Origin: Fibrobacterota bacterium
Lineage (GTDB): Bacteria; Fibrobacterota; Fibrobacteria; UBA11236
NCBI GenBank assembly: GCA_947466585.1
Contig: CANIEU010000001.1
Span: 236,414 to 300,413, forward strand
Length of the DNA stretch: 64,000 nucleotides
Direction: 5' to 3'
Position 1 is the stretch's first letter. Every line of letters starts with the position of its first letter. The notes under the pieces were generated by a model. It searched no databases. It saw only the letters and a list, made by a program, of their open reading frames with translations, and had not been told where the DNA came from. Below, one piece after another: positions 13,348 to 14,405 of this stretch. The position numbers and the translations under genes are program-made.

Positions 13348-14405
13348 CTTGCATGGCCAAGCAAACCCGCCTTACCAAGCTCCCGAAAATATCCCGTGCA
13401 AGCTTTGCCCCCTGCACGTAGATTAGCATGCAAGCTGAAAACCTGCCGTAATATTCATTTTTACGATGGTTGGAATTCCCTTCCGATGAAGGAACCCCAT
13501 GGAACCCTCTCCGACCTTTGTTACCCCCGTTTCCGAACTGCGTGTCGACCTGATTGCCGAGGCCCGCAACCATGCAAGGCTTTATAACGCCAAGCATGCA
13601 TGGTCCCACCTGGATGATGAGGCCTTGTTAAAGGCGGCGGGTCTATTACGTCAGGATTCCGGCACGGGTGAATGGTCGGTAACCCCTGCAGGCACCTTGC
13701 TTTTCGGGCCAAATTCCGCAATTTCTGCCCTCTTTCCCAACCTTCGCACCCTGATCGTGCGTCGTGATCGCCCCGATGGCAAGCGCATCGAAATTCGGAC
13801 TCCGCTTAATGTGTTGGAAACCTTCAGCACCCTGATGAATGTGATTTCGGACAGTTTTCCGGCCTTGGGAACACCGGAGCCCAGGAACCATGCAAGTCCG
13901 GAAACCCGCGCATCCGGATCACTTAGTGGGCTCCGCGACCGAGCATTCGAATTGGTACTTGGCTTTTTAATCAAAAAAAGAGACTATTTCCATGCAACCC
14001 CGGCGACATTCAAGCTGGATGTAGAGCATTTTGCCGTCGAGTTTATGCCCACATCGGAAAATACCTCGGAACAATATGAAGTCTCCCTGATTGCCGACCT
14101 CACCTCGTTTTGGGATACCCTTTACCCGGAGGCTGCAGCAGGCCTAGAATCTGCCCAAGCCTCAACCACCATGCAAGCTTATTTCGGCGTGAAACCCGTA
14201 ATCTTGCATGGAAAAATGGTCAAATTCCTTGCATTAAGGCCACATGCCCTCTCCTTGATTTCTAGAGAACGCTTCGCTGAGAAGGCCGAGAAGCCCGTGA
14301 CTTCCGTGCAAGTCGCGCCACCCAAGCTTGCATGGAATGAAAAGGCTGCCGCGTCCCGGAATGAAACTGCGAAAATTGACTGGAATGCACCAAAACCCAT
14401 GCAAG
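13348..14405. repeat. Iterated 9-mer CCATGCAAG / CTTGCATGG
   Basis: Exact copies at 13348(-), 13570, 13888, 14169, 14203(-), 14327(-), 14397. One-mismatch copies at 13394, 13426, 13595(-), 13990, 14304. Confidence 0.9.

What the first reader, a model, noticed from the sequence alone, without database searches (positions are those of the whole stretch)
13348..14405. CCATGCAAG iterated across one orphan gene in all reading frames
Seven exact 9-mers (both orientations) and five one-mismatch copies in about 1.06 kb; random expectation for exact copies is about 0.01. Inside the gene the motif falls in all three frames (N-H-A-R, T-M-Q-A, I-L-H-G, L-A-W, P-M-Q-V), and it also occurs in the upstream gap, so selection is at DNA level. 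I saw no exact copy elsewhere in the window by eye. The encoded protein ends in a winged-helix module. Inference: self-encoded binding sites spread through its own gene (autoregulatory spreading or nucleoprotein coating), a gene-restricted uptake/packaging-like signal, or an immunity/target mark.
Basis: partly seen in the sequence, partly recalled or inferred. Interest (0 to 1): 0.85.

Follow-up and report, generated by a model that had tools for sequence, protein, structure and literature searches.

The report
Gene studded with its own operators
A bacterial gene carries, across its coding sequence and in front of it, many copies of a nine-letter DNA word that its own protein is very probably built to bind, and comparison with over a hundred related genes shows that the protein's DNA-reading helix and the word written in its gene change together, letter by residue.

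Summary
The gene (13499-14605, 368 aa) is not an orphan. It is a RecG-like/AlbA_2 relative without the AlbA_2 domain, ending in a Fic-like_C winged helix (PF21247). Relatives without AlbA_2 carry peptides that fit the word in several frames, at shifting positions; AlbA_2-bearing ones almost never do. Those instead encode 11-12-nt arrays of NNN-[C/G]AAG words in the linker before the winged helix. Across 94 non-redundant winged helices, the start of the recognition helix covaries with the word in its own gene (z 22, 15, 14; median column about 0-1), also at synonymous bases and in a held-out set. The window's N330-R331-D332-H333 pairs with ATG-CAAG, as in unrelated phyla. The syntenic ortholog keeps two words, both in its promoter region. 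Best reading: self-encoded binding sites of the protein's own winged helix, used for autoregulation. Binding and repression are inferred, not measured; why copies fill the coding region is open.

The parts
13499..14605 (+). Gene for a 368-aa RecG-like/AlbA_2-family protein without the AlbA_2 domain, with C-terminal Fic-like_C winged helix
   Evidence: ORF; Pfam PF21247; homologs; AF2
14411..14593 (+). Region coding for the winged helix (aa 305-365): H305-312, H319-326, recognition helix H331-344, wing strands 348-350 and 362-365
14486..14497 (+). Codons N330 R331 D332 H333, start of the recognition helix, the positions that covary with the word in the family
14252..14404 (+). Disordered linker (aa 252-302, pLDDT < 50); the place where relatives carry 11-12-nt word arrays
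13318..13498 (.). Intergenic region upstream of the gene with three words (one exact, two with one mismatch)
13348..13356 (-). word, exact, upstream
13394..13402 (+). word, CCGTGCAAG, upstream
13426..13434 (+). word, GCATGCAAG, upstream
13570..13578 (+). word, exact (NHAR)
13595..13603 (-). word, CCATGCATG
13888..13896 (+). word, exact (NHAS)
13990..13998 (+). word, CCATGCAAC
14169..14177 (+). word, exact (TMQA)
14203..14211 (-). word, exact (ILHG)
14304..14312 (+). word, CCGTGCAAG
14327..14335 (-). word, exact (LAW)
14397..14405 (+). word, exact (PMQV)

Best explanation
CCATGCAAG is the DNA site of the winged helix at the C-terminus of the protein that this very gene encodes. The start of the recognition helix (N330-R331-D332-H333) reads the ATG-C part of CC-ATG-CAAG. 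The sites lie upstream of the gene and throughout its coding sequence, on both strands and in several frames, so the gene is a private, multi-site target of its own product, and the protein most likely controls its own expression by binding there (promoter occlusion plus looping or road-blocking over the gene). Shown from sequence: the cluster, its restriction to this gene, selection at DNA level, recurrence in relatives, and the residue-base covariation between recognition helix and self-encoded word. Inferred: physical binding, repression, and the role of the in-gene copies.
For: Cluster and genome restriction. DNA-level selection in the gene: several frames, both strands, shuffles. Relatives without AlbA_2: mostly 3-7 motif-compatible peptides each, against 0.1-0.4 in shuffles, almost none in AlbA_2 members. 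Word arrays in the linkers of PF21247 genes: 58 of 80 have a 12-nt periodic linker; the same word at 11-nt spacing through changing frames (L146, L155) and in both orientations (L085, L150, L152). Covariation: 94 winged helices under 75% identity; x1-t1 z 22, x3-t3 z 15, x2-S z 13.6, each the top column while the median column is 0.6, 0.9 and -0.3; R at x2 gives CAAG in 65/65, H at x1 gives G in 29/30, D at x1 gives C in 24/27, E at x3 gives G in 30/32. Synonymous-base test p 9e-10. Held-out set: t1 12/15 against 6 by majority, t3 13/16 against 7. NRDH/NRDN paired with ATGCAAG words also in L305, L176 and L079. Recognition-helix position from AF2. Syntenic ortholog in G003: both of its words lie in the intergenic region before the gene. 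Own words enriched upstream across the family, 7 against 0.6.
Against: No binding or expression data. A first upstream test by another method on the AlbA_2 genes found no enrichment (3 against 2.5); the later positive result rests on four genes, the window's own among them. The G003 ortholog has no words inside its coding sequence, so in-gene copies are not needed in every member. DNA of the other close relatives was out of reach, so their words are inferred from peptides. N at x1 predicts A in only 10 of 16 cases.
Confidence: 0.75

Rival explanations
1. The words are sites of the protein's own winged helix, but the purpose is not autoregulation: the protein senses or marks its own gene (gene-copy or gene-loss sensing, recognition of related elements), with the array as the ligand.
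For: In most family members the arrays sit in the linker, not in the promoter; effector domains include Fic and AlbA_2; some genomes hold 16-17 PF21247 matches.
Against: The syntenic ortholog keeps its words only in the promoter region, which fits an operator; own words are enriched upstream overall.
Confidence: 0.15
2. Ordinary peptide-level linker repeats (minisatellite-like T-x-Q-V units) with no role as DNA sites.
For: 12-nt tandem arrays are easily made by slippage and linkers tolerate repeats.
Against: Words in both strands and several frames, covariation peaking at recognition-helix columns, covariation at synonymous bases, words upstream and in folded regions of the window gene.
Confidence: 0.04
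3. A genome-wide functional word (DNA uptake, Chi, restriction-modification) that happens to cluster here.
For: Short, non-palindromic, iterated word.
Against: 17 copies in 2.24 Mb, 10 outside this gene, at the level of the reversed control word.
Confidence: 0.01
4. The words are sites of another protein (a host nucleoid or silencing factor) that represses this gene.
For: Binding by the encoded protein has not been measured.
Against: Covariation is with the winged helix of the same gene, in many phyla.
Confidence: 0.04

Closest known systems
CccR of Yersinia pseudotuberculosis, a FIC-family toxin with a C-terminal HTH (PMC9755527)
   Same: An effector domain fused to a C-terminal DNA-binding domain; shown by lacZ fusion, EMSA and footprinting to repress its own promoter.
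   Different: Its site is an inverted repeat (AGATAATCAT-N26-ATGATAATCT) in the promoter; the passages read report no iterated words in the coding sequence and no residue-base code.
Fic-like_C winged helix proteins (PF21247), e.g. PDB 4RGL
   Same: Same winged helix; PF21247 genes with Fic domains show the same word grammar.
   Different: The window protein has no Fic domain; a self-encoded DNA word was not found described for this family in the papers searched.
RecG-like/Schlafen AlbA_2 family (COG2865-like), e.g. PDB 3LMM
   Same: The middle region matches by sequence search and by fold (3LMM, E 3e-8).
   Different: No AlbA_2 domain was found in the window protein, and its words are dispersed rather than in one linker array.
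Intragenic operators and autoregulators in general (from memory: lacO2 in lacZ; I-TevI binding its own operator; human ZNF274 binding ZNF coding regions)
   Same: A DNA-binding protein whose sites lie in a coding sequence or in its own gene.
   Different: Those have one or a few sites, or repeats that follow from protein repeats; here the word is iterated in several frames and both strands and co-evolves with the recognition helix across phyla.

Membership tests
PF21247 Fic-like_C winged helix | Profile match over the curated cut-off | tested here: met
   51.3 bits against 27, aa 314-363
PF21247 Fic-like_C winged helix | Three helices and a wing | tested here: met
   AF2: H305-312, H319-326, H331-344, strands 348-350 and 362-365
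Schlafen AlbA_2 (PF04326) proteins | AlbA_2 domain | tested here: not met
   no PF04326 match up to E 5
RecG-like HATPase_c_4 (PF13749) proteins | PF13749 profile match | tested here: inconclusive
   no match in the window protein; relatives P0019 and P0022 carry it, P0012 falls below cut-off; fold match to 3LMM
Autoregulator with own operator | Recognition residues match the site | tested here: met
   family-wide covariation; N330-R331-D332 paired with ATG-C
Autoregulator with own operator | Site in the promoter region | tested here: met
   three words in the upstream intergenic region here, two in the syntenic ortholog; no promoter was mapped
Autoregulator with own operator | Protein binds the site and changes expression | not testable with these tools
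   needs EMSA or footprinting and reporter assays
DNA uptake sequence or Chi-like word | Dense over the whole genome | tested here: not met
   10 copies outside the gene in 2.24 Mb, at control level

The most novel reading that the evidence does not exclude
A widespread class of bacterial and archaeal genes (Fic-type and AlbA_2-type effectors with a Fic-like_C winged helix) writes the DNA word read by its own recognition helix, as an array, inside its own coding sequence; word and helix co-evolve by a simple residue-base code, giving each gene a private self-target. The window gene belongs to a branch in which the word has spread over the whole gene and its promoter region.
Probability: 0.7. 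Interest if true: 0.88.

Novelty: new variant of a known kind. Interest (0 to 1): 0.83.

Why it matters
If true, a large set of poorly understood Fic and Schlafen-like bacterial proteins come with their DNA target printed in their own gene, so specificity can be read from sequence and tested at once. It would give a natural residue-base code for a winged helix, and show genes in which one stretch of DNA is selected both as protein code and as an array of sites for its own product.

Tried and rejected
Uptake, Chi or restriction word: rejected by the genome count. Peptide-level linker repeat: rejected by frames, strands and the synonymous-base test. RNA-level site: unlikely, since copies lie on both strands. 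First upstream test on the AlbA_2 genes: no enrichment; kept as evidence against. Searches of GTDB and viral contigs for close relatives gave none, so DNA of P0002-P0025 could not be read. PADLOC and NCBIfam gave nothing for the window protein. The three ATGCAAG in L001 were looked at and left as probable chance.

Full report
Observation. CCATGCAAG occurs seven times exactly and five times with one mismatch at 13348-14405, and nowhere else exactly in the window. In the whole genome there are 17 exact copies; the ten others are at the level of the reversed control word. At that rate the cluster has a probability of about 1e-20. The six exact copies inside the coding sequence fall in four combinations of strand and phase; shuffling synonymous codons gives 0.86 copies on average and never more than 4, so neither the protein nor its codon usage explains them.

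The gene. The 368-aa product ends in a Fic-like_C winged helix (PF21247). Its first two thirds match the middle of RecG-like/AlbA_2 proteins, but the AlbA_2 domain is missing. AlphaFold2 places the recognition helix at 331-344 and shows residues 252-302 as disordered. The closest relatives (P0002-P0005, 48-50% identity) come from metagenomes. In the same genus, G003 has a diverged gene at the same place between the M16 peptidase and TerC genes; G001 and G002 have no match.

Relatives carry the word too. Counting only peptides that CCATGCAAG can give in its six frames, members without AlbA_2 have mostly three to seven each (P0024 has one), against 0.1-0.4 in shuffled sequences, at different positions and in up to four frames; AlbA_2-bearing members have none to two. 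The DNA of these relatives could not be fetched, so this is inference from peptides.

The wider family. In 58 of 80 AlbA_2 plus Fic-like_C genes from many phyla the linker before the winged helix is a 12-nt array. In register, most units read ACN-NNN-[C/G]AAG. The same word can be read in other frames: SPTQ in L138 and L151 against VTDQ in L131 and L157. In L146 and L155 it recurs every 11 nt and so passes through the frames; in L085, L150 and L152 it is present in both orientations. Q is written CAA more often in the linker than elsewhere in 53 of 63 genes. Genes with a Fic domain show the same grammar.

The code. Let x1-x4 be the four residues before the conserved F of the recognition helix and t1t2t3-S-AAG the commonest word in the same gene's linker. 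In 94 winged helices under 75% identity, x1 covaries with t1 (z 22), x3 with t3 (z 15) and x2 with S (z 13.6). These are the top columns for each base, while the median column is at 0.6, 0.9 and -0.3, so shared descent alone does not explain it. The pairings make chemical sense (general knowledge): N with A, D with C, H with G, and R, K, E with G, G, C on the other strand. At fourfold-degenerate triplets x3 = E goes with t3 = G in 21 of 22 cases against 5 of 34 otherwise (p 9e-10), so the relation is with DNA, not with the linker peptide. Training only on winged helices less than 50% identical predicts t1 in 75 of 94 (majority 47). In 34 further winged helices fetched afterwards, t1 was predicted in 12 of 15 and t3 in 13 of 16 (majority 6 and 7), while S barely beat majority (14 of 16 against 12). 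The permutations do not keep relatedness; the column control does that job only in part.

The window gene fits the code. N330-R331-D332 predicts A, C and (mostly) G, and the word is ATG-CAAG. The same helix start goes with ATGCAAG words in L305 (six copies) and L176, and NRDN does so in L079 (mixed with GTGCAAG); L305 lies in another genus of the same phylum, L176 and L079 in other phyla.

Mechanism. The simplest reading is autoregulation. In the syntenic ortholog both words lie in the short intergenic region before the gene, 24 nt apart, and none in the coding sequence. The window gene has three upstream. Across the family, own words are enriched in the 200 bp upstream (7 against 0.6 for exchanged words), but this rests on four genes, and an earlier test with another definition was negative. 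For most members the linker array is therefore the main site, and its purpose (road-block, looping, titration, self-sensing) is open. A known parallel for the autoregulatory step is CccR, a Fic toxin whose C-terminal HTH represses its own promoter (PMC9755527).

Novelty. Searches of open-access papers found no description of self-encoded word arrays or of this code; subscription journals are not covered. Autoregulation and intragenic operators are known, so it is filed as a new variant of a known kind, although the co-evolving, coding-sequence-embedded form seems undescribed.

Noticed in passing
window 6984-7099 and 28426-28540: Two stretches with AATGAGA repeated every 7 nt, each with an inverted copy nearby; likely a dispersed palindromic repeat.
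   Followed up: no
L075: Another AlbA_2-type protein (G102) with a different winged helix has a linker with ATGAGCGATA-like words iterated about 8-10 times (KMSD units), so the array habit may extend beyond PF21247.
   Followed up: no
L024, L027, L066: Fibrobacter-like AlbA_2-type genes with GGL/GTL linkers iterate GGCGGATTA and end in another type of winged helix.
   Followed up: no
L020 and L245: Proteins with two Fic-like_C winged helices, each preceded by its own word array.
   Followed up: partly
genomes G873 and G801: 16-17 PF21247 matches in one genome, with different linker words.
   Followed up: partly
L200: A gene with three own words upstream and linker words in two frames, a possible second case of dispersed words.
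   Followed up: no
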